Assembly (NCBI RefSeq): GCF_035917995.1
Contig: NZ_CP109131.1
Location: 4,278,001-4,342,000 of the forward strand
DNA: 64,000 nucleotides
DNA from: Streptosporangium sp. NBC_01755
Lineage (GTDB): Bacteria; Actinomycetota; Actinomycetes; Streptosporangiales; Streptosporangiaceae
Reading direction: 5' to 3'
Translations under genes and position numbers: made by a program
Shown: positions 341 through 36,490 of the stretch, one piece after another
Position numbering within the stretch: position 1 is the first letter of the stretch
Layout of the letters: every line of letters begins with the position of its first letter
Notes under the pieces: model-generated
What the model was told of the DNA's origin: nothing
Databases searched by the model: none
What the model saw: the letters and a program-made list of their open reading frames with translations, nothing else

Positions 341-376
341 ATCGTGGCTCTCCGGACATTACCGGCGTCATTATCG
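341..376 (-). promoter_or_regulatory. Island operator/promoter A (for the CaiB gene at 334)
   Basis: On the plus strand ATTACCG (358-364) and ATTATCG (370-376) repeat with a 12-bp period; on the gene strand these read TAAT half-sites. Fifteen nt from the proximal TAAT lies CACGAT (346-341), a -10-like hexamer that ends 6 nt before the GTG at 334. The site separates the CaiB gene from the regulator gene that ends at 381. Its geometry matches the other island sites. Confidence 0.65.
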
Positions 377-380
377 CGAG

Positions 381-3300
381 TCAGGTTCCGTTGGTTCTAA
401 CGGCGCGCGCACCGGGTTGGGGTCGGATCTCGCGTCGGGGTGCGGCGGGTTTGGCCTCGAGCAGCCGGCGGGCGTCGCCGGGTCCAAGGCCGAGCTCCTG
501 CAACGCGGCCACCGCCCGGCGATAGGCGGCCAGGACGGAGCTCTCGCTGCCGATCGTATGCTCGATCTGGACGAGCAGCCGGTATCCCGGGTCGCTGTAC
601 CGGTTGAGCGCCAGCAGCTGTTCGCACTCCTCGCGGGCCTGCTCGGGTTGGCCGAGCTCGACCAGCAGCCGGGCCAGTTCCAGGCGCGCCTCCTCTTGAA
701 CGACGTCGAGGTGATGGCGTCGCTCCTCGGCCCAGCTCAGGTTGCTGCCACCCAAATAGGGGCCCTGGACGATCTCAAGGGCGGCGCGAAGCCGGAGAAC
801 TCGCCCGTCGCCGCTCGCCCAGCTGGCGGTCCGCAGAAGGTCCTCGAACCGCACGTCCGCAGCGTCGACGACGGTGTCGGTCGGCAGGCCCACCAGGTTC
901 CCGTTGCGCCGGTCCAGCGACAGCCCCGTGATCCGCCGGAACTGGAACGAGATCTGGCGGAAGTGGTTGCCGCCGTTGCGCAGAGGGACGTCCGGGAACA
1001 GGACGCTCTGCAATCGGGTGCGGTCGATCCCATTGGGATGCAGAACCAGCAGCGCCATCAGCTCGATGATCTTCATGCGGCCGATCTTCTGGGGCACGCC
1101 GTTGATCCAGATGTCGCGTTCCGGTCCGAACGGTTGCAGCCCCAGCCGGACGTTGCCCACCGCGGTGGGCAGGCGGAGCGGCCGGGCCGACGGGGCGATG
1201 ACGAGCCTCCGCCAGCGCATGCCGATCGGGTCGCGGGCGTCCTCCCGCTTGGCGATGTCCGGGAATGCCCGAAGGGCAGGCAGTAAGGTGGTGAAGCTGC
1301 CCATCAGGGCCGCCGTGTGGTAGGCGAGGTCGGCGGCCTCGTGCGCGGCGTCAAGGTCGCCGCAGCGTGCTTCGGCTTCGGACAGGCATGCGGCCGCGAA
1401 CGGCAGGTAGAGCCGCCGATGTGCCTTGTTCATCGACCGCACGCACTCGTTCAGCAACGGTCGCGCGGTTTCGGCACGGTCGTCGACGAGCAGCGCGAGC
1501 CCGAGGTATGTCTGACCCCACTCCAGCAGCGCCGTCTGACCCGTGGTCGCGGTGCGCTCGATGCCGTCCTGGAGCGCGGCGACCGCATCCTCCCGCCGGC
1601 CGAGTTGGAGCAGGATGTAGCCGGACAACAGCTCGTAGGCGGGGAACAGGAAGAAGGTGGTCTTGCGGCTGTCGGTGAGCGCGACCCTGATCGCCGACAG
1701 CGCGAGCTCCCGCTCACCCTCACTCAGCAGCAGCAGGGCCTCGATGAAGTGTGACTGCGGGCGTTCCCGGATCTCTTCCGGGACGCGGTTCCACAGACCC
1801 TGCGCCTCTTCGACCTTGCCGGCGAAGATCGACGCCAGAATCACATTGGGGTTGACCACGGGAGCTTTGGGATCGGCCGGGATGAGCGCGCGGAGTTCGG
1901 CGACCCTGCCCTGCAGCAGCAGACCCCAACTCATGATCCGCTCCACGTCGCCCCAGTCGGATCCGAGCGGCGGCATGGCGGGAGTGAGGTCGGTGCACAC
2001 CGAAAGCATGAAACGCATGACGTCGGCCCGGTAGTCGCCCTGATAGCGGTCGAGCAGCCGGCGGGCTTCAGCGGGGTCGGACTGTAGCGCCCACGCCGCG
2101 GTGGCCAGCAGGGCGTGGTCGGCCTCCATCGCCGCCCGCAGCAGGCCGTTGCGGTCGAGGTTGCGGATCAGCTCGATCGTCTCCTGAAAGCAGCGCTGGC
2201 CGAACAGCGACCGGATCAGCGCGGCGAGCAGCTGGGGGCTGCTGTGCAGCCGCTCGCGACCGAGCCGGTTCGCCCAGCGCAGGAAGGTGTCCCAGTCGGA
2301 GCGATCGCACAGGGCCGCCGCGGCCATCTCGGCGGTCGTCTGTGCCTGACCGAGCTCGTCGATGGACAGGTACAGCTCGGTCGCCTCTTCGGCGTGCCGG
2401 TGGGCGAGCAGGAAGCGGGCGTACCGTCGCACCAGCTCGACTCGCCGCTGCGGGTCGCGGGCGAGCAGCTGGCGGTGCAGGAACGAGCGGAACAACGAGT
2501 GATAGACGACCGTGGTCTCGGTCATCGTGGTGGCCGGCAGGTGCAGCGTGCGGAGCGTGTCCCAGAGCGCATGCGCGTCGTCGCCGCACAGCGCCGCCGC
2601 CGTCTGCCGGGTGAGTACGTCGGGCACCGAGCTGTCCAGCAGGAACTGCTGTTCGGCGGGTGTCAGCTCGGACAGCACGTCGTTCATGATCACCGACGGC
2701 AGGTCGTGCGACAGGCGCTGCTCGTGGAGGCCGTAGCGGTAGCTGAACGCCGCGCCCGCGGTCCAGCCGCCGGTCGCCTCGTGGACACGTGCCCGTTGTT
2801 CCGGCGGCCCTCCGAGCAGCTCGCCCAGGTGCTCGTTCTCCTTGGACGTCAGCCGAAGCTGAGTGTCGGTCACCAGCCGGATCCGGCCGTCGAGCATCCG
2901 ATGCCGAAGCGGGCCGGTGAGATCGGTCCGGCTGAGCAACAGGATCCGCAGGGGTTCGGGGCAGTACTCCAGAAAGGTTCCCAGCGCCGACTGCGCGTCC
3001 TCGGAGTACTCGAGGTGTTCGCATTCGTCGATGACCAGCAGCACGGGCTCCGGCGGCACCGAACCGGCGATGAGCGACGCCGCCTCTTCCAGTGTCGTTT
3101 CCAGATGGAAGGCCGTGTGGCGCCCGCTTTCCTGCCCGGAACCGCGCGGCGTCATCAGCGCCTCTTCGAGCCCGGACAGCAGTCGGCGTGGCGAGCTGTG
3201 CGAGCTGTCCAGGGTGATCCAGGAGATCGGCAGGGGGGTCAGCGCGCCGTACAGCTGTGCCTGAACGGTCTTGCCCGATCCCGGTGCCGCCGACACGAGC

Positions 3301-3518
3301 AGCACGTTGCATTCAGCGAACAGCTCGTCGAACAGATGGTCGAGTCGGGCGCGCCGCAGCACCTCACGGGGCATCCCGGGCTGGCGCAGGCGGTGGGGGA
3401 GCAGCCCGGGTTGCTTGGCCGCCACAGTGCCCGGTCCCTGAGGTCTGCCGTCGGAGGCGTCGTCGCTGGTCACCAGGGCCCTACTCCTCTCTGAGCGAGT
3501 TGTGGTGCCCATTTGCAC
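381..3518 (-). CDS. MalT-like STAND ATPase regulator with C-terminal SARP-type winged helix and BTAD
   Basis: 1,045 residues from GTG 3518 (ATG at 3512 is an alternative). Residues about 50-340 form a STAND/MalT-type NTPase with Walker A 'APGSGKT' (78-84) and Walker B 'VLLVIDEC' (about 159-166). A long TPR-rich helical region follows (about 370-790). From residue about 792 there is an OmpR-like winged helix ('WINGVPQKIGRMKIIELMAL', then a recognition-helix region 'NHFRQISFQFRR'), and from about 890 a bacterial transcriptional activator domain ('ALEIVQGPYLGG...AYRRAVAALQ'). This is the domain order of AfsR turned round: sensor ATPase first, DNA-binding SARP module last. No LuxR-type HTH is present. 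It is the only regulator among the catabolic genes, so it is the natural candidate for the 12-bp direct-repeat operators found throughout 0.3-36.5 kb (inference). The inducer is unknown. Confidence 0.88.
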   Translation of the reverse strand: MQMGTTTRSERSRALVTSDDASDGRPQGPGTVAAKQPGLLPHRLRQPGMPREVLRRARLDHLFDELFAECNVLLVSAAPGSGKTVQAQLYGALTPLPISWITLDSSHSSPRRLLSGLEEALMTPRGSGQESGRHTAFHLETTLEEAASLIAGSVPPEPVLLVIDECEHLEYSEDAQSALGTFLEYCPEPLRILLLSRTDLTGPLRHRMLDGRIRLVTDTQLRLTSKENEHLGELLGGPPEQRARVHEATGGWTAGAAFSYRYGLHEQRLSHDLPSVIMNDVLSELTPAEQQFLLDSSVPDVLTRQTAAALCGDDAHALWDTLRTLHLPATTMTETTVVYHSLFRSFLHRQLLARDPQRRVELVRRYARFLLAHRHAEEATELYLSIDELGQAQTTAEMAAAALCDRSDWDTFLRWANRLGRERLHSSPQLLAALIRSLFGQRCFQETIELIRNLDRNGLLRAAMEADHALLATAAWALQSDPAEARRLLDRYQGDYRADVMRFMLSVCTDLTPAMPPLGSDWGDVERIMSWGLLLQGRVAELRALIPADPKAPVVNPNVILASIFAGKVEEAQGLWNRVPEEIRERPQSHFIEALLLLSEGERELALSAIRVALTDSRKTTFFLFPAYELLSGYILLQLGRREDAVAALQDGIERTATTGQTALLEWGQTYLGLALLVDDRAETARPLLNECVRSMNKAHRRLYLPFAAACLSEAEARCGDLDAAHEAADLAYHTAALMGSFTTLLPALRAFPDIAKREDARDPIGMRWRRLVIAPSARPLRLPTAVGNVRLGLQPFGPERDIWINGVPQKIGRMKIIELMALLVLHPNGIDRTRLQSVLFPDVPLRNGGNHFRQISFQFRRITGLSLDRRNGNLVGLPTDTVVDAADVRFEDLLRTASWASGDGRVLRLRAALEIVQGPYLGGSNLSWAEERRHHLDVVQEEARLELARLLVELGQPEQAREECEQLLALNRYSDPGYRLLVQIEHTIGSESSVLAAYRRAVAALQELGLGPGDARRLLEAKPAAPRREIRPQPGARAVRTNGT

Positions 3519-3590
3519 CCGACTGTCCGAATCTTAGTCATTTGCGCAAGTAATGCAAGGATCCGACACCGCTGGCCGGGCGACCGTCGT

Positions 3591-3622
3591 TAACGGAGCG
3601 GATAACGAGCGGGTCCGAGCCT
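3591..3622 (+). promoter_or_regulatory. Island operator/promoter B (for the ornithine-cyclodeaminase-like operon)
   Basis: TAACGGA (3591-3597) and TAACGAG (3603-3609) repeat with a 12-bp period, and GAGCCT (3617-3622) lies 14 nt from the start of the second repeat as a -10-like element. The site is in the divergent gap between the regulator gene (start 3518) and the plus-strand operon starting at 3661, so it could also influence the regulator's own transcription. A transcript from here would carry a leader of roughly 30 nt. Confidence 0.6.
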
Positions 3623-4647: not shown

Positions 4648-4659
4648 GGAGTTTCCAGC

Positions 4660-5492: not shown

Positions 5493-5525
5493 TAACGAGG
5501 CCGGTAACCGGTCGGCCGCCATTCT
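5493..5525 (+). promoter_or_regulatory. Island operator/promoter C (for the extradiol dioxygenase-like operon)
   Basis: TAACGAG (5493-5499) and TAACCGG (5505-5511) are 12 bp apart. CATTCT (5520-5525) follows 15 nt from the second repeat as the -10-like element. The next gene starts at 5556, so a short leader with an AGGAGGAAG-type ribosome site is expected. Confidence 0.65.
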
Positions 5526-10491: not shown

Positions 10492-10527
10492 AGTCTGCGC
10501 CGCGGCCTATTACCGCCGTCATTACGA
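10492..10527 (-). promoter_or_regulatory. Island operator/promoter D (for the amidohydrolase operon)
   Basis: On the plus strand ATTACCG (10509-10515) and ATTACGA (10521-10527) are 12 bp apart; on the gene strand they are TAAT repeats. CAGACT (10497-10492 on the minus strand) follows 15 nt from the proximal repeat. It is one half of a back-to-back operator pair with D2. Confidence 0.65.
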
Positions 10528-10537: not shown

Positions 10538-10570
10538 TAACGCCCGCGGTAATCGGACCGGGCGCACGCT
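10538..10570 (+). promoter_or_regulatory. Island operator/promoter D2 (for the acyl-CoA ligase operon)
   Basis: TAACGCC (10538-10544) and TAATCGG (10550-10556) are 12 bp apart, with CACGCT (10565-10570) 15 nt after the second repeat. The gene starts at 10618. D and D2 point in opposite directions, each toward its own operon. Confidence 0.65.
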
Positions 10571-10617: not shown

Positions 10618-12711
10618 ATGACCGAGGTACAGCCTGTGGAGATCGAGCGTTTTTATCGACCGCGGTCGATCGCGGTCGTCGGCGCACACGACACACGAGC
10701 GGGTCTGGCCGGGCTGACGGAGAAGGCGATCACGCACGCCAAAGCCGTCGGGGCGGCGTTTCACCCGGTGAATCCGAAGCGAGAATCCGTGTTCGGGATT
10801 CCCTGCGTCGCGAGCCTGACCGATCTCCAAGGGCCCATCGATGTGGTGGTCGTCCAGGTCGGCGACCCGGTCGGCGTGATCGACGCGGCGGCCGACGCCG
10901 GGCTGAAGGTCGGGTTCTATCTGGTCTTCTCCAACGGGTTCTCCGAACTCGGCACCCCCGAGGGGGTCGCCCGGGAGCGCAGCCTGCTCGAGGCTGTGCG
11001 CCGGGCCGGAGCCCGGCTGGTCGGTCCGAACACCAACGTCAACGCCTGGGACCCGCTCGCCGACCTGCCCGGCCGCCGGCTCGCGGTGGTGTCGCAGAGC
11101 GGCGTGCAAGGGCGGCCGTTGACGCAGGCCCAGGAACTGGGGGTCGCACTGAGCTACTGGGCGCCGACGGGCAACGAGGCCGACCTGGAAGCGGCGGACT
11201 TCGCCGAGTTCTTCGTGCGCGACCCGGAGACCGCGGCCGTCTGCGGCTACATCGAGGGTTTCAATTCCGGCGAGAAGCTGCGCTCGGCCGCCATCGCCGC
11301 GATCGAGAACGACACCCCGATCGTGCTGGTGAAGGTCGGCCGCAGCAGCCTCGGCAGCTCGATGGCGCAGTCCCACACGGGCCACCTCGCCGGCGCCGAC
11401 GAAGTCTACGACGCGTTCTTCGAGCAGTTCGGCATGGTCCGGGTGCCCGACGTCGACCAGCTCGTCGAGGTCGGGGTGGCGCTGGCCCGATGTCCGATAC
11501 CGACCGCCGAAGGCGTGGTGATCTGCAGCGCCTCCGGCGGCACCGCGGCGCACGTCGCGGATCTGGCCACGCTCGGCGGCCTGTCGATGCCTTCGCTGTC
11601 CGCGCGGACGCAGGCGGATCTCGCCGAAGTCATCCCTGCGGGCTTCCGCCTCGACAACCCGGTCGACAACGGCGGCGCGGTGGTGATCGGCGATCGCGAG
11701 GCCGGGCGGCGGATCTGGGAGCTGTGCCTGCGTGACGAGCACATCGGCGTGATGCTCTGCCCGATCCCGGCGTCGGCCCCCCAGCTCACCGACGCGATGA
11801 TCGAGATCGTGCTGCAGGTCGCGGCTACGGCGACCAAGCCGATCCTGCCGATCTGGAGCGGCCCATCCGTGCGGCATCCCGGTTATCAGGCATTGTGGGA
11901 TGCCGGGCTGCCCGTGTTCCGCAATGTCAGCAATGCCGTCGCCGCGGCCCGTGCGCTGATCGGCCATCCGGCGCGTACGCCCCGGCTGAAGGAGATCGCC
12001 CGGCTGGCCCGGGAGCATCCCTCGCCGGCGGTGCCCAGCGGCGAGGGGTGGGTGCTGGAGGAGAGCGAGTCGACCCGCTGGCTCGAGAGCCACGGGATTC
12101 CGTTCGCCCGGCACGCCTTGGCCGGCACGGTCGAGGAGGCTGTCGAGGCGGCGGAGACCATCGGCTGTCCCGTCGTGCTCAAGGGCCGCGGCGCGGCACA
12201 CAAGAGCGAGCGCGGGTTCGTCGTCACCGGGCTCGCCGACGCGGCTGCCGTGCGGGCGGCCGCCGAGCTGCTTCGCGACCGGGGAGCGGCCGGATTCCTC
12301 GTCGCCGAGCAGGTCAGCGGGGGCATCGAACTGCTGGTGGGCATCACCGCTGACCCCGTCCTGGGCCCGGTGGTGCTGGTCGGCGCGGGCGGGGTGACCG
12401 CCGAGGCTCAGCGTGACGTCGCCCGCTCGGTGTTGCCGCTGACCCGCGAACGGGCCATGGAGATGCTCGCTGGCCTGCGCATTTCACCGCTGCTCGACGG
12501 CTGGCGCGGCGCGCCCGCGGCGGACCGCGACGCGGTGGTCGACCTGCTGTTGAAGCTCGCGAGCATCGCCGAGACCGGCCAGGTGGTCGAGCTGGACGTC
12601 AACCCGATTCTCGCGCGACCAGGCGGTGTGCTCGGGCTGGATGCGCTGGTCCGACTGGCTCCCGGGGTGACGGGCCCCGTAACGGGTTCGGGCACAGGGT
12701 GGTCGGCATGA
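10618..12711 (+). CDS. Acyl-CoA ligase (NDP-forming acetyl-CoA synthetase superfamily)
   Basis: 697 residues from ATG 10618 (GGAAGGAG upstream). The order is a CoA-binding domain (about 5-140, 'FYRPRSIAVVGAHDTRAG'), a succinyl-CoA-ligase-like flavodoxin domain with the phospho-acceptor His in 'QSHTGHLAG' (about residue 252), and a C-terminal ATP-grasp domain (about 480-697, 'GCPVVLKGRGAAHKSERGF', 'VLVGAGGV'). Relatives activate aromatic or branched acids as CoA thioesters with ADP formation. It opens a five-gene string with 4-nt overlaps (ligase, flavoprotein, Ltp, DUF35, epoxide hydrolase), so its product probably feeds those enzymes. Confidence 0.9.
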   Translation: MTEVQPVEIERFYRPRSIAVVGAHDTRAGLAGLTEKAITHAKAVGAAFHPVNPKRESVFGIPCVASLTDLQGPIDVVVVQVGDPVGVIDAAADAGLKVGFYLVFSNGFSELGTPEGVARERSLLEAVRRAGARLVGPNTNVNAWDPLADLPGRRLAVVSQSGVQGRPLTQAQELGVALSYWAPTGNEADLEAADFAEFFVRDPETAAVCGYIEGFNSGEKLRSAAIAAIENDTPIVLVKVGRSSLGSSMAQSHTGHLAGADEVYDAFFEQFGMVRVPDVDQLVEVGVALARCPIPTAEGVVICSASGGTAAHVADLATLGGLSMPSLSARTQADLAEVIPAGFRLDNPVDNGGAVVIGDREAGRRIWELCLRDEHIGVMLCPIPASAPQLTDAMIEIVLQVAATATKPILPIWSGPSVRHPGYQALWDAGLPVFRNVSNAVAAARALIGHPARTPRLKEIARLAREHPSPAVPSGEGWVLEESESTRWLESHGIPFARHALAGTVEEAVEAAETIGCPVVLKGRGAAHKSERGFVVTGLADAAAVRAAAELLRDRGAAGFLVAEQVSGGIELLVGITADPVLGPVVLVGAGGVTAEAQRDVARSVLPLTRERAMEMLAGLRISPLLDGWRGAPAADRDAVVDLLLKLASIAETGQVVELDVNPILARPGGVLGLDALVRLAPGVTGPVTGSGTGWSA

Positions 12712-19670: not shown

Positions 19671-19706
19671 AGGCTCTCGTCCGACTCGTTATCAAACCCG
19701 TTAACG
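19671..19706 (-). promoter_or_regulatory. Island operator/promoter E (for the tandem CaiB genes)
   Basis: On the plus strand GTTATCA (19688-19694) and GTTAACG (19700-19706) have a 12-bp period. GAGCCT (19676-19671, minus strand) follows 15 nt from the proximal repeat. It ends 6 nt before the ATG at 19664, consistent with a leaderless mRNA. It is back to back with E2. Confidence 0.65.
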
Positions 19707-19734: not shown

Positions 19735-19767
19735 TAACGCGGACCGTAATGGAACGCCGCCGATGCT
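19735..19767 (+). promoter_or_regulatory. Island operator/promoter E2 (for the SDR at 19800)
   Basis: TAACGCG (19735-19741) and TAATGGA (19747-19753) are 12 bp apart; GATGCT (19762-19767) follows 15 nt from the second repeat. An extra TAAT at 19713 lies 22 bp upstream of the first repeat and may be a third, weaker half-site. The gene start (19800) has GAGGAG before it. Confidence 0.65.
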
Positions 19768-22150: not shown

Positions 22151-22186
22151 AGCGTGACCGGCTGCGGGTTACCGGCCGCGTTACCG
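22151..22186 (-). promoter_or_regulatory. Island operator/promoter F (for the ALDH at 22072)
   Basis: On the plus strand GTTACCG (22168-22174) and GTTACCG (22180-22186) are an exact direct repeat with a 12-bp period. CACGCT (22156-22151, minus strand) lies 15 nt from the proximal repeat. A leader of about 75 nt carries the AGGAGGT-like ribosome site. Confidence 0.68.
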
Positions 22187-23823: not shown

Positions 23824-23859
23824 ACCTTGCCCCCGGGGACGTTATCGACCTCGTTAACC
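23824..23859 (-). promoter_or_regulatory. Island operator/promoter G (for LLM-DoxX)
   Basis: On the plus strand GTTATCG (23841-23847) and GTTAACC (23853-23859) are 12 bp apart. CAAGGT (23829-23824, minus strand) is 15 nt from the proximal repeat. It is the left half of a back-to-back operator pair, 10 bp from G2. Confidence 0.65.
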
Positions 23860-23869: not shown

Positions 23870-23901
23870 TAACGTTGCCGGTAATCCGTCGCAAGCACGC
23901 T
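23870..23901 (+). promoter_or_regulatory. Island operator/promoter G2 (for the LLM gene at 23909)
   Basis: TAACGTT (23870-23876) and TAATCCG (23882-23888) are 12 bp apart; CACGCT (23896-23901) lies 14 nt from the second repeat and ends 7 nt before the GTG at 23909. There is no ribosome site between them, so the mRNA is probably leaderless. Confidence 0.67.
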
Positions 23902-24835: not shown

Positions 24836-25589
24836 GTCCGGAGCCCGCCGTCAGCAGTTCGCCGCCGTCGATGGGGATCGTCACCCCGGTGAGGTAGGCC
24901 GCGTGGTCTCCCACCAGGAACGCGACGAGATCCGCCACCTCTCGAGGGGTGCCGAGGCGGCCCTGCGGATTGAGCGGCTGATCGCGTTTGCGCGCCCATT
25001 GAACGATGGGCCCGACCAGATCGGTCTCGACCTTGCCCGGCGCCACGCCGATGACCCGGACCTGCGAAGAGGCCCATTCGAGAGCGAGCACCCGGGTGAG
25101 CATGACCAGAGCGGACTTGCTGACGTTGTAGGCGACCAGCCCGCGCGAAGGATAGTAGGCGGCAGTGCTGGCGTTGTTGACGATCACACCGCCGCGCTCA
25201 CCCATCAGCCCCTTCGCGCGGCAGGCCAGGTACCAGGGCGCCGACAGATTGACCTCGAGGGTGTGATCCCAGACGTCCTGGTCGGTGCGCTCGGCCCGGG
25301 TCGCGGTCGGCAGCACGCCGGCATTGTTGACCAGGATGTCCAGGGAACCGAACTCGTCCTCGACGCGGTCCATCAGCGCGCTCAACGACGATCGGTCCGC
25401 CATGTCGGCGGCGATCGCCGCCGCCCGCGCACCAGAGGTCCGCAGTTCCTTCGCGAGTGCGGTGATTGGGCCCTCGCTGCGGGCGACGAGCACCACCTCG
25501 GCGCCGTCCTCGGCGAGCCGCCGGGCGATGGCTTCGCCGATTCCCCGGCTCGCCCCGGTAACCAGGGCTCGACGTCCATGTAGCTGCAT
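24825..25589 (-). CDS. SDR family oxidoreductase
   Basis: 254 residues from ATG 25589; the open frame extends far upstream but the operator and -10-like element lie directly before this ATG. Intact SDR motifs are 'TGASRGIG' (about 10-17), 'LVNNAG', the catalytic Ser in 'NNASTAAY', YxxxK as 'YNVSK', and 'TGVTIPIDGG'. NAD(P)-dependent dehydrogenase/reductase; the substrate is unknown. Its last 11 bp overlap the end of the convergent LLM gene, an unusually tight arrangement in an otherwise hairpin-separated island. Confidence 0.9.
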   Translation of the reverse strand: MQLHGRRALVTGASRGIGEAIARRLAEDGAEVVLVARSEGPITALAKELRTSGARAAAIAADMADRSSLSALMDRVEDEFGSLDILVNNAGVLPTATRAERTDQDVWDHTLEVNLSAPWYLACRAKGLMGERGGVIVNNASTAAYYPSRGLVAYNVSKSALVMLTRVLALEWASSQVRVIGVAPGKVETDLVGPIVQWARKRDQPLNPQGRLGTPREVADLVAFLVGDHAAYLTGVTIPIDGGELLTAGSGLTP

Positions 25590-25595: not shown

Positions 25596-25630
25596 ACTGT
25601 CGGCACGGCATATTACCGCCCGCGTTATGA
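25596..25630 (-). promoter_or_regulatory. Island operator/promoter H (for the SDR at 25589)
   Basis: On the plus strand ATTACCG (25612-25618) and GTTATGA (25624-25630) are 12 bp apart. GACAGT (25601-25596, minus strand) is 14 nt from the proximal repeat and ends 6 nt before the ATG, again pointing to a leaderless transcript. Confidence 0.65.
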
Positions 25631-25712: not shown

Positions 25713-28046
25713 GTGAGCTTCAGCCCGGACGAGGAAGCCGAGGCCTTGCGCGCGGTGGTCCGCGACTTCCTGGACAAGCAGTCGCCCGAGGACGAGGTTC
25801 GCCGCCTCATGGAGACCGGTAGCGGCGTCGATCCCACGGTCTGGCGGAAGGCGGCCGAGGAGCTCGGGCTGCACGGGATCGCGATCCCCGAACGTCACGG
25901 TGGCAGCGGGGCGGGCCCGGTCGAACTCGGGGTGGTGTTCGAGGAGATGGGCGCCGCGCTCTACTGCGGCCCGTTCTTCGCCACCGTGGGCCTGGCCGCG
26001 ACCGCGCTGACCGAGTTCGGCGGGGACGGCGCCGCCGAGTACCTGCCGGGCATCGCCGCGGGCGACACGATCGCGACGCTGGCCTGGCCGGGTACCGGCA
26101 CCGGCGGCGGTGCGTTGAGGGCCCTGGAAACCGACGGTGGGTGGACGGTGTCGGGGACGGCCGGCATCGTCATCGACGGCGCCGCCGCCGATCTCGTCCT
26201 GGCCGCGGCCGACACCGCCGCCGGCGTGGGCCTGTTCGCCGTCGACGGCACGGCGTCGGGCCTGCGGCGCACCCCGCTCACGACGCTGGATTCCACCCGC
26301 AAGCTCGCTGAGCTTAAGTTCCACCGCGTCCCCGCCCGCCTGCTCGGCAGGGCGGAAGGCGTGCTCCGCCGCACCGGCGACCTCGCCACCCTGTATCTGG
26401 CCGCGGAGCAGCTGGGCGGGGCGGCTCGGGTGCTCTCGACCTCGGTGGACTACGCCGGCACCCGCGTGCAGTTCGGCCGGGCGATCGGCTCGTTCCAGGC
26501 CATCAAGCACCGCTGCGCGGACATGCTGATCGACGTGGAGTCCGCGCGTTCGGTGGTCTACCACGGCCTGTGGACCGCGGTGCACGACCCGGTCAACCTG
26601 CCGGCCGCCGCGGCGCTGGCCCGCGCGATCGCCTCCGACGCCTACCAGCGCGTCGCGGCGCACAACGTGCAGATCCACGGCGGCATCGGATTCACCTGGG
26701 AACACTCGGCGCACCTGTATCTCAAGCGGGCCAAGAGCAGCCAGCTGCTGCTCGGCCCTCCTGCCCGCCACCGTGCCCGGCTCGCCGAACTCGTCGACAT
26801 CGCCGGCACCGGAGCGGCTGGCACGAGAGCCGCCGCCCTTGAACCGGCTCTCGAACCCACGCCGCTGGAGGAGGCCGTCTCGGAGTTCCTCCGGACGCAC
26901 CCGGTTCCCGATCCGGCCGACCGGGCGGCCGACCGGGCGTTCCGCGAAGCCCGGTTCGACTCCGGGCTCGCGGTGGTGAACTTCGCCGCCGGTTTCGGCG
27001 GGCGGGGACTCGACCCGTCCCTGCAGCCGGCGGTCGAGGAACGGTTCGCCCGGGCCGGAGCCGCGGACCATAGCGGGCGCAATGTCATCGGGCTCGGCAT
27101 GGCCATGCCCACGATCCACGCCCACGGCACCGACGAGCAGAAACGACGCCACCTGCGCCCCTGCTTCTCCGGCGAGCACATCTGGTGCCAGCTTTTCTCC
27201 GAGCCGGGCGCGGGTTCCGACCTCGCCGCCCTTGCCACCCGGGCCGTGCGCGACGGTGACGACTTCGTGGTCAACGGGCAGAAGATCTGGACCTCGCTCG
27301 GGCACGTCTCCGATTGGGGCATCCTGCTGGCCCGCACCGATCCCGACGTGCCCAAGCACCAGGGGCTGACCTACTTCCTGCTGGACATGCGCTCACCCGG
27401 TGTCGAGGTCCGCCCGCTGCGCCAGCTGACCGGCGAGGCCGAGTTCAACGAGGTCTACCTGACCGACGTGCGGATCCCCGTGGCGAACGTGCTCGGTGAG
27501 GTCGGGCAGGGCTGGCGGGTCGCGATGACGACCCTCGCGAACGAGCGGGTGTCGCTCGGCGGCCGTACGGCCGAGCGCGGCGCCGGCCCGATCGCCCAGG
27601 CCGTCGAGATCTACCGCACCGCGCTGGCCGAGGGGCGCGTCGACGCCGCGACCACCGAGCGGCTCATGCTGCTGTGGACCCGGGCCGAGGCCGCCCGGCT
27701 CACCAACGCCCGGGCCGCGGCGCAGATCGGCCGCGAGCCGGGGCCGGAGGGGTCGATCGCCAAGCTGCAGATGGCCGAGCTGAACAAAGCGATCTACGAG
27801 CTGTGCGTCGACCTGTCCGGGGACGCCGGCCTGCTGATCGACGACTACACCGAGACCACGCCCGACACCACCGCCGTGCACGGCGGTTCCGATGTGCGCA
27901 AGGCCTATCTGCGTTCGCTGGCCAACTCGATCGAGGGCGGCACCTCGGAGGTGCTGCGCACCATTCTCGGGGAGAGGGTGCTGGGCCTGCCCGGCGAACC
28001 CCGGATCGATCGCGACATCCCCTGGAAGGACACCCGACGCTCGTGA
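25713..28046 (+). CDS. Two-domain (fused) acyl-CoA dehydrogenase, FadE34-like
   Basis: 777 residues from GTG 25713 with a full AGGAGGT ribosome site. It is two acyl-CoA dehydrogenases in one chain. Residues about 1-365 end in 'HNVQIHGGIGFTWEHSAHLY'; residues about 385-777 contain the flavin/substrate loop 'CQLFSEPGAGSDLA', 'GQKIWTSLGH' and end in 'SIEGGTSEVLRTILGERVLG'. Single-chain pairs like this replace the alpha2beta2 dehydrogenases that act on bulky (for example sterol side-chain) acyl-CoAs. It should introduce the alpha,beta double bond and is followed by an SDR, a second SDR, thiolase and MaoC, a full beta-oxidation set. Confidence 0.9.
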   Translation: MSFSPDEEAEALRAVVRDFLDKQSPEDEVRRLMETGSGVDPTVWRKAAEELGLHGIAIPERHGGSGAGPVELGVVFEEMGAALYCGPFFATVGLAATALTEFGGDGAAEYLPGIAAGDTIATLAWPGTGTGGGALRALETDGGWTVSGTAGIVIDGAAADLVLAAADTAAGVGLFAVDGTASGLRRTPLTTLDSTRKLAELKFHRVPARLLGRAEGVLRRTGDLATLYLAAEQLGGAARVLSTSVDYAGTRVQFGRAIGSFQAIKHRCADMLIDVESARSVVYHGLWTAVHDPVNLPAAAALARAIASDAYQRVAAHNVQIHGGIGFTWEHSAHLYLKRAKSSQLLLGPPARHRARLAELVDIAGTGAAGTRAAALEPALEPTPLEEAVSEFLRTHPVPDPADRAADRAFREARFDSGLAVVNFAAGFGGRGLDPSLQPAVEERFARAGAADHSGRNVIGLGMAMPTIHAHGTDEQKRRHLRPCFSGEHIWCQLFSEPGAGSDLAALATRAVRDGDDFVVNGQKIWTSLGHVSDWGILLARTDPDVPKHQGLTYFLLDMRSPGVEVRPLRQLTGEAEFNEVYLTDVRIPVANVLGEVGQGWRVAMTTLANERVSLGGRTAERGAGPIAQAVEIYRTALAEGRVDAATTERLMLLWTRAEAARLTNARAAAQIGREPGPEGSIAKLQMAELNKAIYELCVDLSGDAGLLIDDYTETTPDTTAVHGGSDVRKAYLRSLANSIEGGTSEVLRTILGERVLGLPGEPRIDRDIPWKDTRRS

Positions 28047-28783
28047 CCATCTCCTTCGACTTCACCGGCCGTACCGTGATCGTCACCGGCGCGGCCCAGG
28101 GCATCGGGCGGGGCATCGCCGCCCTGTTCGCGGATGCCGGCGCGCGCGTCGCGCCGTTCGACCTCGACCCCGCCGCGCTCAAGGCGGCCTGGGGCGAGCG
28201 CGGTGACACCATCGCTCCGGTCGCCGTCGACGTGGCGGACGCGGACGCGGTCGCGGCGGCCGTCGAGGACGTCGCGGGCTGGGGCGGCGGCATCGACATC
28301 GCGGTGAACAACGCCGGCATCACCCGCGACGCGGTGGTCTGGAAGCTGTCGTCGGCGCACTGGCAGCAGGTCCTGGACGTGCACCTGGGCGGCACCTTCC
28401 ACCTCACCCGGGCGGTCGTGGGGCACATGCGCGCGGCCGCCTTCGGCCGGATCATCAACGTCACCTCCTACACCGGCCTGCACGGCAACATCGGCCAGTC
28501 CAACTACGCGGCCGCCAAGGCCGGGATCATCGGATTCACCAAGGCCGTCGCCAAGGAGGTCGCCCGGTTCGGCATCACCGTGAACGCGATCTCCCCCAAC
28601 GCCGCCACCGCGATGGTCGCCGGCGTTCCGGCGGGCAAGCTCGCCGAGCTCACCGCCGCGATCCCGCTCGGGCGCTTCGCCGATCCCGCGGAGATCGCGC
28701 CCGCGGTCGGCTTCCTGGCCTCCGAACAGGCGGGATACATCACCGGGACCGTCCTCCCGGTCGACGGCGGGATGTCGATGTGA
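28043..28783 (+). CDS. SDR family oxidoreductase (FabG-like)
   Basis: 246 residues from GTG 28043 (GTGA overlap with the dehydrogenase stop). Motifs are 'TGAAQGIG' (about 14-21), 'VNNAGIT', the catalytic Ser in 'NVTSYTG', YxxxK as 'YAAAK', and '[13 protein letters not shown]'. The '[14 protein letters not shown]' block is typical of 3-oxoacyl-ACP/CoA reductases, so this is probably a 3-hydroxyacyl-CoA/3-ketoacyl-CoA oxidoreductase of the beta-oxidation spiral. The next gene overlaps its stop by GTGA. Confidence 0.9.
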
Positions 28784-29538
28784 AGATCACTGATTCCGTC
28801 GCCCTGGTCACCGGCGGCGCCTCCGGTCTCGGCCGGGCCACCGCAGAACGCCTGCGGGGCGATGGCGCCCGGGTGGTCATCGCCGACCTGCCCGCCTCCG
28901 GCGGTGAGGCGGTCGCGGCGCGGATCGGCGCCGTCTTCGCCCCGGCCGACGTCACCTCCGAGGCCGACACGCGCGCGGCGGTCGCCGCCGCGACCGGGCT
29001 CGGCCCGCTGCGTGTCCTGGTGAACTGCGCCGGCGTCCCGGAGTCGCTCAAGGTCCTTGACCGGTCCGGGCAGGCCTCCGACCTCGAGCGGTTCCGCCGA
29101 ACGGTGTCGGTCAACCTGATCGGCACCTTCAACGTGATCCGGCTCGCCGCCGAGGCCATGATCGGCAACGAACCCGTCGACGGCGACCGCGGCGTCGTGG
29201 TCTGCACCTCCTCGGTGGCCGCCTTCGACGGCACCGTGGGCCAGGCCGCCTACAGCGCGTCGAAAGCCGGCGTCGCGGGTATGACGCTGCCAATCGCCCG
29301 GGAACTCGCCGAGCACGCGATCCGGGTCGTTTCCATCGCCCCCGGCATGTTCGAGACCCCGCTGTTCCTCGGACTTCCGGAGAAGGCCCAGCGCTCGCTG
29401 GCCGCGCAGGTGCCGCACCCCAGCCGGATGGGACGACCGGTCGAGTTCGCCGACTGTGTCTCCTTCATCGTCGGCAACCCCATGATCAACGGCGAGACGC
29501 TGCGGCTGGACGGCGCGCTCAGAATGGCACCCCGGTGA
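28780..29538 (+). CDS. SDR, HSD10-type 3-hydroxyacyl-CoA dehydrogenase-like
   Basis: 252 residues from GTG 28780 (GTGA overlap). Motifs are '[11 protein letters not shown]' (about 11-21), 'LVNCAGV' in place of NNAG, a long loop before '[13 protein letters not shown]' with the catalytic Ser, YxxxK as 'YSASK', and '[14 protein letters not shown]'. The loop and 'APGMFETPL' are characteristic of type 2 3-hydroxyacyl-CoA dehydrogenase (HSD17B10). Position between the acyl-CoA dehydrogenase and thiolase fits the third beta-oxidation step. The gap to the thiolase (128 bp) contains no operator. Confidence 0.88.
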
Positions 29539-29666
29539 CGGGTGCCGACCAGCAGCAGGCCGCTCGCGGGTCATGACCGCGGCCGTCCTTCGATCGCATG
29601 CCAGGACGCCCGATTCGCCGGTCCCGCCGACCGACGCCATACATCAATCCCCGAGAGGAAACCCTC

Positions 29667-30818
29667 ATGCGTGACGCCGTCATCGTCGAGGCCGTCCGTA
29701 CGCCCGTCGGTAAACGCAACGGCGGCCTGTCCGGCGTGCACCCGGCCGACCTGTCCGCCACCGTGCTCCGCGCCCTGGCCGACCGCGCGGGGATCGCCCC
29801 GGCGCTCGTCGATGACGTGGTGTGGGGCTGTGTGAGCCAGATCGGCGAGCAGACCTTCGACATCGCGCGGACCGCGGTGCTCGGCGCGGGCTGGCCCGAG
29901 TCGGTGCCCGGCACGACCGTCGACCGGCAGTGCGGCTCATCCCAGCAGGCGCTGAGCTTCGCCGCGGCCTCGGTGATCGCCGGGCATTACGACCTCGCCG
30001 TCGCCGGCGGCGTGGAGTCGATGTCGCGGGTCCCGATGGGTTCGGCCATGAGCGACGGCCAGTCCCCGCTGGGGCTGGGCTACGTCGCCCGCTACGGGGC
30101 GGACTTCCCGAACCAGGGGCTGGGCGCGGAGGAGATCGCCCGGCGTTGGTCGATCACGCGGGAAGCCGTGGACACGTACGCGCTGCAGTCCCACGAACGT
30201 GCCGCCGCCGCAGCCGACGGCGGGCTGTTCGCCGGCCAGATCATTCCGGTCACGACTCCTGACGGCACGGTGGTCGACGCCGACGAGGGGATCCGCCGCG
30301 GGGGCACGCTCGAGACGCTCGGCGGGATCAAACCGGCGTTCCGGCCCGACGGCGTAGTGACCGCAGGAAACAGCTCGCAGATCAGCGACGGCGCGGCAGC
30401 GCTGCTGGTCACGACCTCGCAGCGGGCGCGTGAACTCGGGCTGACCCCGATCGTGCGGGTGCACACCGCCGTCGTGGTCGGGTCGGAACCGGGAATCATG
30501 CTGACGGGGCCGATCCCGGCCACGCACAAGGCGTTGCGGCGCAGCGGTCTCGCGCTGGCCGATATCGGCGCGTTCGAGGTCAACGAGGCGTTCGCCACCG
30601 TCACGCTGGCCTGGCTCGCCGAGATCGGCGCGGACCAGAAGCTGCTCAACCCCAACGGCGGCGCGATCGCGCTGGGGCACCCGCTGGGCGGGTCGGGCGC
30701 CCGGCTGGCCACCACCCTCGTCCACCACATGCGCGACAACGGCATCCGCTACGGCCTGCAGACCATGTGCGAAGGCGGCGGGCAGGCCAACGCGACGATC
30801 CTGGAGCTGATCGCGTGA
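29667..30818 (+). CDS. Acetyl-CoA acetyltransferase / 3-ketoacyl-CoA thiolase
   Basis: 383 residues from ATG 29667 with GAGAGGAA upstream. The thiolase catalytic set is complete: nucleophilic Cys in '[11 protein letters not shown]' (about residue 88), 'NEAFA', His in '[16 protein letters not shown]', and the second Cys in 'MCEGGGQ'. Unlike the Ltp protein at 14087 this is a true Cys thiolase, so it should cleave a 3-ketoacyl-CoA to acetyl- or propionyl-CoA. It overlaps the MaoC gene by GTGA. Confidence 0.93.
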
Positions 30819-31267
30819 CCGTCACGATCAGCTTCGACGAGCTGCGCGGCGCCGCCGGTCGCGACCTCGGGTACAGCGACTGGATGGTCGTCGATCAGTC
30901 CCGCATCGACACCTTCGCCGACGCGATCGAGGACCACCAGTGGATCCACCTCGACCCCGTCCGCGCGAAGGACACCCCGTTCGGCCAGACCATCGCCCAT
31001 GGCTACCTCACGCTGGCCGCGGCCGGCACCCGCCTGGGCGAACTGCTCAAGGTCGACGGCGCGTCGAGCATCATCAACTACGGCCTGGACCGGGTCCGGT
31101 TCCCCGCCCCCGTCCTGTCCGGTTCCCGGATCCGCACGCATGCCACGATCACCGAGGTGAGCGAGGTCCCGCGCGGACTCCAGGTCGCGGCCCGCGTCAC
31201 AGCCGAGGTCGAAGGCGGCGACCGGCCGGTCTGCGTAGCCGACGTTCACATCCGCTACCTGCGCTGA
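30815..31267 (+). CDS. MaoC-like (R)-specific enoyl-CoA hydratase
   Basis: 150 residues from GTG 30815, overlapping the thiolase stop. The hydratase-2 dyad region reads 'EDHQWIHLDPVRAKDTPFGQ' followed by 'TIAHGYLTLA', supplying the Asp and His that activate water in single-hotdog MaoC enzymes. It should hydrate the enoyl-CoA made by the fused dehydrogenase, completing the four beta-oxidation activities in this operon. The operon ends at the perfect hairpin at 31282. Confidence 0.92.
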   Translation: MTVTISFDELRGAAGRDLGYSDWMVVDQSRIDTFADAIEDHQWIHLDPVRAKDTPFGQTIAHGYLTLAAAGTRLGELLKVDGASSIINYGLDRVRFPAPVLSGSRIRTHATITEVSEVPRGLQVAARVTAEVEGGDRPVCVADVHIRYLR

Positions 31268-33936: not shown

Positions 33937-34793
33937 ACCACTCGCTCCGATCGCATCCCGAACAGCCCCTGGGGCCGCAGCAGCAGCACGCCCATCAGCA
34001 GGACGAACAGGGACAGGTTGGCGTACGACGCGCCCAGGTACCGGGCGCTCAGGGACTCCGTCACACCCACGGCGAGCGCGCCGACCAGGACGCCCAGGTT
34101 GCTGCCGTATCCGCCGATGGTCAAGACAACGAAGGCGTGCATGACGAGCAGCGCTCCGAGGTTGAAGATGGCGTAGGTCTGCGGGCCGACGACGGGGCCC
34201 AGCGCCCCGAGCAGCCCTCCGCCCATGGCGAAGGCGACGGTGGACAGGAGCTTGACGTTGATGCCGCGCAGCGTCGCGGCCTCCCTGTCCTCTGCCGTCG
34301 CGAGGTTCGCCAGACCGGCGAGGGTGGCTCGCAGCCAGACGTGGAAGCCGATGGCGGTCGCGACGGCGAGCGCCACGATCACGAACTCGTTGATCGAGGC
34401 CCGGCCACCGATGAAGTCGATGACGGTGCGAGAGCCGAACCCTTCCAGTTCCAGTGGGTCCGGACCCCAGATCAGCAGGATGACGCTGACCATGACCACC
34501 GACCAGCCGAGCGTCGTGACCAGCTCACCGTGGCCACCGGCGCGCAGCGGCCGGATGGCTATCCGTTCCTCAAGTATTCCGATGACCGCACCGACCGCGA
34601 GGCCGATGGGGATCGCCATCACCACGGGCCAGTTGAGGGTCGAGGTGGTCAGGTACGATACGAACGCGCCCGCCACCAGGAACTCAGGCTGGGCGAAGTT
34701 CAGCGTCCCCGACGCGACGTAGACGATGTTGAACCCGATCGCCACCAAGGCCAGGACCGCCCCGGTCGAGATACCATGCCAAATGGTCAACAT
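33933..34793 (-). CDS. Liv-type ABC permease (LivH-like)
   Basis: 286 residues from ATG 34793 (GAGGTGGG upstream). The open frame reaches 34916, but the extra 41 residues are unlike the family and overlap the operator. Typical LivH text is 'GISTGAVLALVAIGFNIVYV', 'TLNFAQPEFLVAGAFVSYL', and 'MGGGLLGALGPVVGP' among about eight hydrophobic segments. It forms the channel with the LivM half of the fused gene. It is preceded by its own operator copy (site I) even though the SBP gene lies upstream on the same strand. Confidence 0.9.
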   Translation of the reverse strand: MLTIWHGISTGAVLALVAIGFNIVYVASGTLNFAQPEFLVAGAFVSYLTTSTLNWPVVMAIPIGLAVGAVIGILEERIAIRPLRAGGHGELVTTLGWSVVMVSVILLIWGPDPLELEGFGSRTVIDFIGGRASINEFVIVALAVATAIGFHVWLRATLAGLANLATAEDREAATLRGINVKLLSTVAFAMGGGLLGALGPVVGPQTYAIFNLGALLVMHAFVVLTIGGYGSNLGVLVGALAVGVTESLSARYLGASYANLSLFVLLMGVLLLRPQGLFGMRSERVV

Positions 34794-34886: not shown

Positions 34887-34921
34887 AAAGTTCCGTTGCG
34901 TCGTTATGAGGGGCATTACGT
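34887..34921 (-). promoter_or_regulatory. Island operator/promoter I (for the permease/ATPase genes)
   Basis: On the plus strand GTTATGA (34903-34909) and ATTACGT (34915-34921) are 12 bp apart; AACTTT (34892-34887, minus strand) is 14 nt from the proximal repeat. The site lies in the 258-bp gap between the binding-protein gene (stop 35052) and the permease start (34793), giving the membrane components a separate transcript with a leader of about 85 nt. Confidence 0.55.
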
Positions 34922-35051: not shown

Positions 35052-36248
35052 CTACTTCCAGGTCCCGTCCTCGAGGGGCGTGACCGACTTGACGACGGCG
35101 TAGTCGTTCTCGCCCGCGTCGATGAAGTGGTCGGTGGCGCTCCATGCCATCGTCGTGTAAGCGACGTAGGGACGGTCCTGCTCCGCCGGCTGCTCGAGAT
35201 TCTCCAGCGCCTGCTTGACCTGGTCCGGGTCGGTGGAGCCTGCCTGCCTGACGCCCATGGCCACCAGTTGGAGCAGGTCGTGCGGCCACGCGTAGTTGAG
35301 CAGGACGGCCTCCATATTCCCCTTGGCCTTGAGCCCGGCCTGAAGCGAGGTATAGGCGGGGGTCCGGGCGGCCGGCTCACGGTAGGCGTTGATGGCGTAG
35401 GTGTGAATGGAGACGCCTTCGAGCTCCTCCGGGCTGACGAGGTTGTACACGTCGGTGGTAATCGCCTCGTTCAACATCAGCGGGGCGTCCCAGCCGGACT
35501 TGGCGCGGCTCTTGATCACGTACGGCGCCGCCGGGCCCGCCGCGAACGCGACGACGCAGTCCACGCCGGCGGACTCCAACCGGGCCAGCGGAGCCGTCAT
35601 GTCGATGTCCCCGGTCGCGTACTCCTCGACGGTCAACGGCAACCCCGCGCTCTCGAATCCCGCGGGATAGTTGTCGCGTACCGGCTCACCACTCGCGTCG
35701 TTGGGTGCCAGCAGGCCGACGGACTTGCAGCCGAGTTCCTGCATGGCCGCGACGTTCGCCGGCATTCCGTCGGTCGCCTGGTGTGCGGACGAGTGGAAGG
35801 TGTAGGGATACTTCTCGGGGTCGTTGATCGCCTCGTTGCCGGTAGCGCCGATCGAGAGGATCTTGCGCTGGCTCAGCACCGGGAGCAGGGCGAGAGTCTC
35901 CGCGCTGATCGTGCCGTCCCACACGAGGTCGGGCTGGTCACCGCTGGCGAGCTCCTGCTGAAGCAGGCTGACGGCCTTTGTCGGGTCGCTCTGGGAGTCC
36001 AGGACCTTCAGCTCCACCTGCTGCCCGAGGATGCCACCCGCCTTGTTAAGCTCGTCGGCTGCGACCTGCAGCCCAATAAGGAACGGCTTTCCGAGAGCGG
36101 CCAGTGGCCCGGTCTGTGAGGCCACGACCAGGACCTTGAACGTCGAGTCTGCCGAGTCGCTGGAACCGCTCTCGGCGTCCCCCCCACAGCTGGACAGAAG
36201 GAGGGCGGACGCGGTGACCACAGCCGTTACCAGGATCTTGGGCTTCAT
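35052..36248 (-). CDS. Lipoprotein substrate-binding protein of the Liv-type importer
   Basis: 398 residues from ATG 36248. A lipoprotein signal peptide ends in the lipobox 'LLSSC' (Cys21), followed by a Gly/Ser/Asp-rich linker. The mature part is a periplasmic-binding fold type I of the HAAT/Leu-Ile-Val class ('VLVVASQTGPLAALGKPFLI', 'GLQVAADELNKAGGILGQ', 'VDCVVAFAAGP'). It captures the island's substrate outside the cell. Relatives bind amino acids, aromatic acids, amides or urea, so the ligand cannot be named. The gene is first in the transport cluster, with operator J upstream. Confidence 0.9.
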   Translation of the reverse strand: MKPKILVTAVVTASALLLSSCGGDAESGSSDSADSTFKVLVVASQTGPLAALGKPFLIGLQVAADELNKAGGILGQQVELKVLDSQSDPTKAVSLLQQELASGDQPDLVWDGTISAETLALLPVLSQRKILSIGATGNEAINDPEKYPYTFHSSAHQATDGMPANVAAMQELGCKSVGLLAPNDASGEPVRDNYPAGFESAGLPLTVEEYATGDIDMTAPLARLESAGVDCVVAFAAGPAAPYVIKSRAKSGWDAPLMLNEAITTDVYNLVSPEELEGVSIHTYAINAYREPAARTPAYTSLQAGLKAKGNMEAVLLNYAWPHDLLQLVAMGVRQAGSTDPDQVKQALENLEQPAEQDRPYVAYTTMAWSATDHFIDAGENDYAVVKSVTPLEDGTWK

Positions 36249-36287
36249 TGGGTCTACTTGCCCTTCATGAGATGACAGGTAGCGGCG

Positions 36288-36323
36288 AGTAGAGGACCCA
36301 GGCTGTTACCTCGAACGTTATGC
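36288..36323 (-). promoter_or_regulatory. Island operator/promoter J (for the binding-protein gene)
   Basis: On the plus strand GTTACCT (36305-36311) and GTTATGC (36317-36323) are 12 bp apart. TCTACT (36293-36288, minus strand) sits at the usual 15-nt distance but deviates from the SA start of the -10-like consensus. Confidence 0.55.
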
Positions 36324-36445
36324 GCGTCACACTCATGGCGTCGCGACGGTGCCGGATGTCCCGTGTGTCCGTACGCTCTGTCGAGAAGGCGCCGCGACCT
36401 CGTCGGTCCGCGATCTTCGACCTGGACCCAGCCTTTCCAGGGCGT

Positions 36446-36490
36446 TAACGGTGTTCGGTCACGGCGTGCGTAACGGTCCGGCCCGAGACT
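36446..36490 (+). promoter_or_regulatory. Island operator/promoter J2 (for the alcohol dehydrogenase)
   Basis: TCACGGC (36459-36465, one mismatch) and TAACGGT (36471-36477) are 12 bp apart; a further TAACGGT at 36446 lies 13 bp upstream of the TCAC, making a triple repeat. GAGACT (36485-36490) is 14 nt from the last repeat and ends 6 nt before the ATG at 36497, consistent with a leaderless message. Confidence 0.55.

What the first reader, a model, noticed from the sequence alone, without database searches (positions are those of the whole stretch)
341..36490. A 36-kb regulon marked by 12-bp-spaced TAAY direct repeats
Nearly every transcription unit of the catabolic island is preceded by two half-sites, TAAY on the gene strand, exactly 12 bp apart: 358/370, 3591/3603, 5493/5505, 10509/10521, 10538/10550, 19688/19700, 19735/19747, 22168/22180, 23841/23853, 23870/23882, 25612/25624, 34903/34915, 36305/36317 and 36459/36471 (the last with one mismatch). 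All 14 have the same orientation toward their gene, and divergent units carry two back-to-back copies. Fourteen such sites at gene starts cannot reasonably be chance. They define a coordinated pathway from importer to beta-oxidation. I know of no described operator of this form.
Basis: partly seen in the sequence, partly recalled or inferred. Interest (0 to 1): 0.88.

Follow-up and report, generated by a model that had tools for sequence, protein, structure and literature searches.

The report
Direct-repeat operator of a catabolic regulon
A soil bacterium's gene cluster, probably for breaking down a ring-shaped compound, carries the same double DNA tag in front of most of its operons, very likely the landing site of one large regulator encoded in the cluster and related to the switches of antibiotic genes.

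Summary
All 13 exact TAAY-N8-TAAY sites and the one-mismatch site lie where stated. The island runs 7.7 kb left of the window, with four more exact sites there. Of 46 exact sites in the 8.15-Mb genome, 17 lie in this 45-kb island; 57 kb of flanks have none. The full site is a heptamer, GRTAAYG, repeated with a 12-bp period, followed at a fixed distance by a weak -10 hexamer (28 of 31 sites).

The regulator at 381-3473(-) joins a MalT-like ATPase to a C-terminal SARP-type (winged helix + BTAD) domain. SARPs bind heptameric direct repeats, so the operator has a known class, and regulators of this architecture are known beside aromatic-degradation genes (CphR/NpdR). New here is the operator: its heptamer, 12-bp period and reuse at about 17 promoters.

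Six of six regulators with GGN[HY]FRQ in the recognition helix have 12-bp-spaced sites around them; eight of eight relatives with another helix, CphR/NpdR included, have none.

Verdict: a convincing regulon; binding and activation are inferred.

The parts
381..3473 (-). Regulator gene: MalT-like STAND ATPase, helical-repeat middle, C-terminal SARP-type domain (the frame allows a start at 3518)
   Evidence: Pfam AAA_22 and BTAD; profile match to MalT 8bob E 4e-35, EmbR E 6e-10 and AfsR E 3e-8
456..1154 (-). SARP-type (OmpR-like winged helix + BTAD) part of the regulator, with GGNHFRQ at the recognition helix
   Evidence: low-confidence models
358..373 (-). operator of CoA-transferase gene (window -895..304)
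   Evidence: exact site; NANNNT at +27
3591..3606 (+). operator of mu-crystallin-like + SDR operon 3661-5484
5493..5508 (+). operator of extradiol dioxygenase-like + aldehyde dehydrogenase operon 5556-7927
10509..10524 (-). operator of amidohydrolase gene 9197-10429 (hydrolase 8084-9061 behind it)
10538..10553 (+). operator of ADP-forming CoA ligase operon 10618-16790
12668..12683 (+). weak internal site, one mismatch, 31 bp before 12699
   Evidence: weight-matrix score 16.0; lowest training site 17.4
19688..19703 (-). operator of two CoA-transferase genes 17246-19664
19735..19750 (+). operator of SDR gene (start 19800 or 19899)-20558
22168..22183 (-). operator of aldehyde dehydrogenase gene 20612-22072
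23841..23856 (-). operator of luciferase-like monooxygenase + DoxX genes 22304-23790
23870..23885 (+). operator of F420-type LLM oxidoreductase gene 23909-24835
25612..25627 (-). operator of SDR gene 24825-25589 (not of the operon at 25713)
34903..34918 (-). operator of ABC importer genes 31335-34793
36305..36320 (-). operator of periplasmic binding protein gene 35052-36248; no NANNNT at the usual offset
36459..36474 (+). one-mismatch operator of alcohol dehydrogenase gene 36497-37621
25713..31267 (+). beta-oxidation operon (fused acyl-CoA dehydrogenase, two SDR, thiolase, MaoC) without a recognisable site

Best explanation
The repeats are the operator of the large regulator encoded at 381-3473(-). 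Each site is two copies of the heptamer GRTAAYG, 12 bp apart, lying in the -35/-10 spacer. Two SARP-type domains (winged helix + BTAD at the C-terminus of the regulator) bind side by side, one per heptamer, and give sigma region 4 and RNA polymerase a substitute for the missing -35, as AfsR does. The N-terminal MalT-like ATPase and helical-repeat arm gate this, probably on binding a pathway substrate or CoA thioester. One regulator thereby turns on about 17 transcription units for import and degradation of an aromatic or alicyclic acid. Shown here: site, clustering, orientation, phasing to a -10, co-occurrence with one regulator clade, domain homology. Inferred: binding, activation, inducer, substrate.
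For: Clustering and spacing specificity. G after the first TAAY in 31 of 31 sites and in 12 of 12 sites of two genomes examined later. NANNNT at offset 26 or 27 in 28 of 31 sites, about 0.7 expected per offset and 0-2 at other offsets. With that hexamer at -12..-7, the downstream half-site T falls at -27 or -26 and the upstream one at -39 or -38; in AfsR, T-38 and T-27 are the contacted bases (PMC10936776 section 7). The C-terminal profile matches EmbR and AfsR over the whole SARP domain. Among 200 family genomes the two with a regulator of this clade have 18 and 15 matches to the extended pattern (reversed control 3 and 3); the other 198 have at most 8. Two genomes found afterwards (39% identity) have 8 and 4 sites at spacing 12 near the regulator and 0-1 at every other spacing from 5 to 30. 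GGN[HY]FRQ is shared by 6 of 6 site-bearing regulators; 8 of 8 relatives without sites lack it. In 6 of 6 loci the regulator gene has no same-strand site upstream, and in 5 of 6 a divergent site lies beside it. None of the 38 island genes scanned, other than the regulator, matched a transcription-regulator family.
Against: No binding or expression data. A single-sequence PDB search of the regulator found no SARP; the homology shows with profiles and the Pfam BTAD hit. The AlphaFold models are poor (mean pLDDT 49 and 59); Foldseek ranks EmbR and AfsR first, but with E 0.02-0.1, TM 0.27-0.37 and rmsd 15-17. The period is 12 bp, not the classical 11, and the gap from the second heptamer to the -10 is 9-10 bp against the 8 bp given for SARPs. 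One exact site is inverted and lacks a -10; the beta-oxidation operon has no site. In the later genomes only 7 of 12 sites have the -10 hexamer at the usual offset. The extended pattern was derived partly from the two genomes that score highest with it.
Confidence: 0.85

Rival explanations
1. The sites are bound by a different transcription factor encoded elsewhere in the genome; the 381-3473 protein is a bystander or acts upstream of it.
For: No direct evidence links protein and site; the regulator gene has no same-strand site in 6 of 6 loci.
Against: Sites appear around all five other regulators of the clade, in rearranged neighbourhoods, and not around eight relatives with another recognition helix; the 198 family genomes in which the clade was not found have at most 8 matches each.
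Confidence: 0.08
2. The repeats are part of promoters of an alternative (ECF-type) sigma factor, TAAC being its -35 element.
For: Rigid spacing to a NANNNT hexamer.
Against: Two equal half-sites 12 bp apart do not look like a sigma -35; the hexamer is a weak housekeeping-type -10, like the CACTGT of the AfsR-dependent afsS promoter (PMC10936776); no sigma factor was matched among the 38 island genes scanned.
Confidence: 0.03
3. The island is repressed, not activated: the protein occupies the -35/-10 spacer and blocks polymerase until an inducer arrives.
For: The site lies inside the promoter, which would also suit a repressor.
Against: The promoters lack good -10 hexamers, so they need help rather than blocking; AfsR and the Actinoplanes MalT are activators (PMC10936776, PMC7567727).
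Confidence: 0.04

Closest known systems
CphR / NpdR-type BTAD regulators of chlorophenol and nitrophenol degradation (Pseudarthrobacter chlorophenolicus A6, Arthrobacter sp. YC-RL1) and relatives on Rhodococcus opacus plasmids
   Same: Full-length homologues (27-30% identity over 91-96% of the query), annotated as BTAD regulators and lying with aromatic-degradation genes; NpdR is placed in the DnrI/RedD/AfsR family in PMC6193132 (one passage seen)
   Different: Different recognition helix (YLRQA instead of GGNHFRQI) and no TAAY pair at spacing 12 in the 32-33 kb around each of five relatives of this type
AfsR and other SARP activators (Streptomyces)
   Same: Winged helix + BTAD domain; direct repeats in the -35/-10 spacer; suboptimal -10; downstream repeat starting about -29 (PMC10936776: passages and section 7 seen)
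   Different: SARP domain at the C-terminus instead of the N-terminus; 12-bp instead of 11-bp period; heptamer GRTAAYG; catabolic genes
SARP-LAL regulators PimR, FilR, SanG
   Same: SARP domain joined to a large ATPase half; two or three heptamers (PMC5930380 and PMC10972967, passages seen)
   Different: Domain order reversed; PimR heptamer CGGCAAG with 3-4-nt spacers; PimR has a single target gene
MalT and the Actinoplanes MalT-regulated large genomic region
   Same: MalT-type regulator; one regulator, 17 motif-bearing start sites in one large region, gene order differing between relatives (PMC7567727, passages seen)
   Different: Binds TCATCC-N5-GGATGA, a different sequence; its regulator is annotated as LuxR family
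EmbR (Mycobacterium)
   Same: Best PDB match of the C-terminal profile (2fez, E 6e-10)
   Different: SARP domain first, followed by an FHA domain (PMC10936776); 388-residue chain without room for the ATPase half

Membership tests
SARP family (DNA-binding part) | OmpR-type winged helix followed by BTAD | tested here: met
   Profile of nine relatives aligns to EmbR and AfsR over about 220 residues; Pfam BTAD E 6e-8 in the window protein and found in 5 of 7 relatives, Trans_reg_C in 3 of 7 but not in the window protein
SARP family (DNA-binding part) | Heptameric direct repeats in the target promoter, in the -35/-10 spacer | tested here: met
   31 sites, -10 at a fixed offset in 28; direct binding not tested
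SARP family (DNA-binding part) | 11-bp (or 22-bp) period of the repeats | tested here: not met
   Period 12 in all site-bearing loci, 0-1 pairs at 11; PMC10972967 gives spacers of 4-15 nt for SARPs, so this is a variant, not an exclusion
Classical large SARP / SARP-LAL | SARP domain at the N-terminus | tested here: not met
   SARP domain lies at residues about 770-1006 of 1030
SARP family | Activates transcription by sigma adaptation | not testable with these tools
   Needs in vitro transcription or a structure
CphR/NpdR-type catabolic BTAD regulators | Full-length homology (ATPase to BTAD) and location in a catabolic cluster | tested here: met
   27-30% identity over 91-96% of the query; catabolic genes around both
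CphR/NpdR-type catabolic BTAD regulators | Same recognition helix and operator | tested here: not met
   Helix differs and TAAY pairs at spacing 12 are absent in 5 of 5 loci
MalT / LAL (LuxR-type) | N-terminal STAND ATPase | tested here: met
   8bob MalT ATPase E 4e-35
MalT / LAL (LuxR-type) | C-terminal LuxR (GerE) helix-turn-helix | tested here: not met
   No GerE match in the Pfam table of the window protein at E up to 1; BTAD there instead; NCBIfam MalT model 69 bits against a cut-off of 537
MalT / LAL (LuxR-type) | GGATGA boxes at target promoters | not tested
   Not scanned

The most novel reading that the evidence does not exclude
The C-terminal-SARP regulators of actinomycete degradation clusters (CphR/NpdR type) form a class with clade-specific direct-repeat operators. 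The clade described here reads GRTAAYG with a 12-bp period and controls a whole degradation island through one reused promoter module that travels with it between genomes. The extra base pair implies a protomer arrangement on DNA different from AfsR's.
Probability: 0.6. Interest if true: 0.57.

Novelty: new variant of a known kind. Interest (0 to 1): 0.48.

Why it matters
SARPs are studied mainly as switches of antibiotic clusters. Here a SARP-type domain, at the end of a MalT-like sensor, appears to run a many-operon catabolic regulon through a simple, searchable operator. The operator lets regulons of uncharacterised degradation islands be read from sequence, suggests how to look for the operators of the CphR/NpdR relatives, offers a promoter module, and its 12-bp period tests how strictly the side-by-side SARP dimer is fixed on DNA.

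Tried and rejected
Chance or a repeat family: rejected by spacing specificity, Markov resampling and clustering. Ordinary MalT/LuxR regulator: rejected, no C-terminal LuxR HTH seen. De novo search for exact 5-mer direct repeats around two 28% relatives gave nothing clear; the same crude method does not bring out the known site in the window either, so that negative is uninformative. Structure: two AlphaFold jobs gave low-confidence models; Foldseek was run on the second only. Substrate: family matches point to aromatic/alicyclic acid degradation via CoA thioesters, but no equivalog cut-off was reached among the families shown for the proteins scanned with NCBIfam (25 families shown per protein), so the compound is not named. 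Literature: ten searches of the open-access library (at most 20 rows shown per search, up to 566 hits in one) showed no title or abstract start on a TAAY operator or on the operator of a C-terminal-BTAD catabolic regulator. PMC4848846 (passages) was not relevant. Subscription papers are not held, so this is no proof of absence.
Full report
Observation. In the whole 8,149,094-bp genome there are 46 exact TAAY-N8-TAAY; 17 lie between genome positions 4272188 and 4314320, in an island of 45.3 kb (genes from 4270313 to 4315621), and 29 in all the rest. The total is no higher than for the reversed control pattern (45); what is extreme is the clustering, since the rest-of-genome rate predicts 0.16 for the island. 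In the island every other spacing between 5 and 33 bp gives 0 or 1 pair; the 56.7 kb of flanks give none at spacing 12. The island begins left of the window, where four more exact sites lie (window coordinates -5812, -5746, -3081, -942).

Anatomy. I aligned 31 exact sites: 17 here, 11 from G106, 3 from a MAG contig. The half-site is longer than TAAY: G (21 of 31) and R (24 of 31) precede it, and a G follows the first TAAY in 31 of 31; before the second TAAY there is G or C (31 of 31) and R (28 of 31), and G follows it in 18. So the operator is GRTAAYG-N5-GRTAAYG, two heptamers with a 12-bp period. A hexamer NANNNT begins 26 or 27 bases after the first T in 28 of 31 sites (11 and 17), against about 0.7 expected per offset and 0-2 at the other offsets tried. 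Sixteen of the 17 exact sites point at a gene start 38-164 bp downstream on their own strand. By my own grouping of genes into transcription units, 17 of 20 units in the island have a site in the right orientation (16 exact, one with a mismatch). The three without are the regulator gene, a DUF7064/7065 gene with an inverted site that has no -10, and the beta-oxidation operon 25713-31267. The site at 25612, which might be taken for that operon's, points at a divergent SDR gene that my gene caller had first missed.

The regulator. The protein at 381-3473(-) has an N-terminal ATPase matching MalT (8bob, E 4e-35), a middle that matches designed helical-repeat proteins, and at residues about 770-1006 a domain matching EmbR and AfsR along its whole length. 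It is not MalT: no LuxR-type HTH was seen, and the NCBIfam MalT score is 69 bits against a cut-off of 537. A single-sequence search of the PDB found nothing useful, and the structure models are poor (mean pLDDT 49 and 59), although Foldseek ranks EmbR and AfsR first (E 0.02-0.1). In the alignment the AfsR recognition helix VRTYASRLRKV lines up with FRQISFQFRRI of the window protein; by my reading this keeps the arginine and basic positions that touch phosphates in AfsR (R87, R94, K95) and changes the base-reading ones (T88, R92), whose roles are given in PMC10936776 section 7.

How it fits a SARP. According to PMC10936776 (passages and section 7) SARP operators are direct repeats with the 3' repeat 8 bp from the -10; the afs box spans -40 to -19, is centred at -29.5, and the specifically contacted non-template bases are T-38 and T-27. 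If the hexamer here is placed at -12 to -7, the second TAAY begins at -27 or -26 and the first at -39 or -38, i.e. in nearly the same place with one extra base pair between the repeats; the gap from the second heptamer to the -10 is 9-10 bp. The AfsR promoter's -10 (CACTGT) is of the same weak type as CACGCT, GACGCT and GAGCCT here. No transcription start has been mapped here, so this placement is inference.

Comparative test, same clade. In 200 genomes of the family, a regulator of the same clade was found only in the window's genome and G106 (which scored the best four candidates per genome; G052 and G082 have 28-29% relatives). The extended pattern TAAYGN5SRTAAY gave 18 and 15 matches in those two genomes (reversed control 3 and 3) and at most 8 in each of the other 198, by my reading of the table; of the 18 here, 17 are in the island. 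The pattern was drawn partly from these two genomes. G106 has two paralogous regulators (50% and 40% identity) in one cluster with 11 sites in 60 kb, none at spacing 11 or 13, each 14-107 bp before a predicted gene start; a dozen genes are 52-75% identical to island genes but differently arranged. A Pseudonocardia MAG contig (7.4 kb, 67% identity) has 3 sites. Two further genomes found later in a search of 345 order genomes (G603, G606; 39% identity; 93% like each other) have 4 and 8 sites at spacing 12 near the regulator and 0-1 at every other spacing from 5 to 30; 7 of these 12 have NANNNT at offset 26 or 27. With a looser pattern (TAAYGN7TAAY) the whole-genome counts against reversed control are G106 26/18, G606 13/7, G603 10/3, G052 5/6, G082 5/8, G405 5/6, so most matches outside the clusters look like background.

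Comparative test, other clade. The 27-30% relatives in G052, G082 and G405 have no TAAY pair at spacing 12 in 20, 20 and 6 kb. Of 54 plasmid records with a match, 7 cover 80% or more of the query; the five I fetched include the regulators of Pseudarthrobacter chlorophenolicus A6 (CphR/CphS by the account of PMC6193132) and of Arthrobacter sp. YC-RL1 (NpdR). Four of the five regions are annotated and hold aromatic-degradation genes; the fifth has no annotation. None of the five has a TAAY pair at spacing 12 in 32-33 kb. The six site-bearing regulators share GGN[HY]FRQ at the start of the recognition helix; all eight others have a YLRQA type instead. So DNA-recognition residues and operator change together. 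G405 does hold five matches on another contig, three of them overlapping at 12-bp steps; such arrays are a source of false hits for this pattern.

What the regulon does. The units encode a Rieske dioxygenase, an extradiol-type dioxygenase, CoA ligases and CoA-transferases, aldehyde and alcohol dehydrogenases, LLM monooxygenases and a branched-chain-type ABC importer. This fits uptake and degradation of an aromatic or alicyclic acid through CoA thioesters; the compound is not identified. In the genus the regulator was found in 1 of 16 genomes, the window's own, so the island is probably acquired.

Conclusion. The most likely mechanism is a STAND-type sensor whose C-terminal SARP-like domain binds two heptamers as a dimer and recruits RNA polymerase at promoters without a good -35. 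It works like a SARP. In architecture it belongs with the CphR/NpdR-type catabolic BTAD regulators, already in print at least by annotation (PMC6193132); its recognition helix, heptamer, 12-bp period and many-promoter regulon set it apart, hence 'new variant of a known kind'.

Noticed in passing
window -942 (genome 4277058, L011 about 9058): An exact site sharing its first 15 bases with the 358 site, but inverted relative to the DUF7064/7065 gene beside it and without a -10; possibly a relic of a duplication or an altered promoter.
   Followed up: partly
46343-47067, next to tRNA-Gly 47229-47300(-): A Gp49/DUF891 gene followed by an HTH gene, like a RelE/HigB-type toxin-antitoxin pair, in a stretch of lower GC (40-48 kb) beside a tRNA gene; perhaps an integrated element.
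   Followed up: no
38047-38622: Short reading frame matching the pterin-binding enzyme family in two separate stretches, shorter than the family profile; may be a remnant.
   Followed up: no
G106:C16 (L019): Two paralogous regulators, 39% identical to each other, about 5 kb apart in one catabolic cluster with a single type of operator.
   Followed up: partly
G405:C23:604651-604993 and G018:C3:10394-10658: Several matches to the 12-bp pattern within a few hundred bases; in G405 on a different contig from the regulator relative and partly an overlapping 12-bp tandem array.
   Followed up: no
genome 3012195 (G000): By my comparison, the only match to the extended operator pattern outside the island; its neighbourhood was not examined.
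   Followed up: no
L031, L033, L034 (plasmids of Pseudarthrobacter and Rhodococcus): CphR/NpdR-type regulators with another recognition helix; their own operators are unknown to me and could be sought in the same way.
   Followed up: partly
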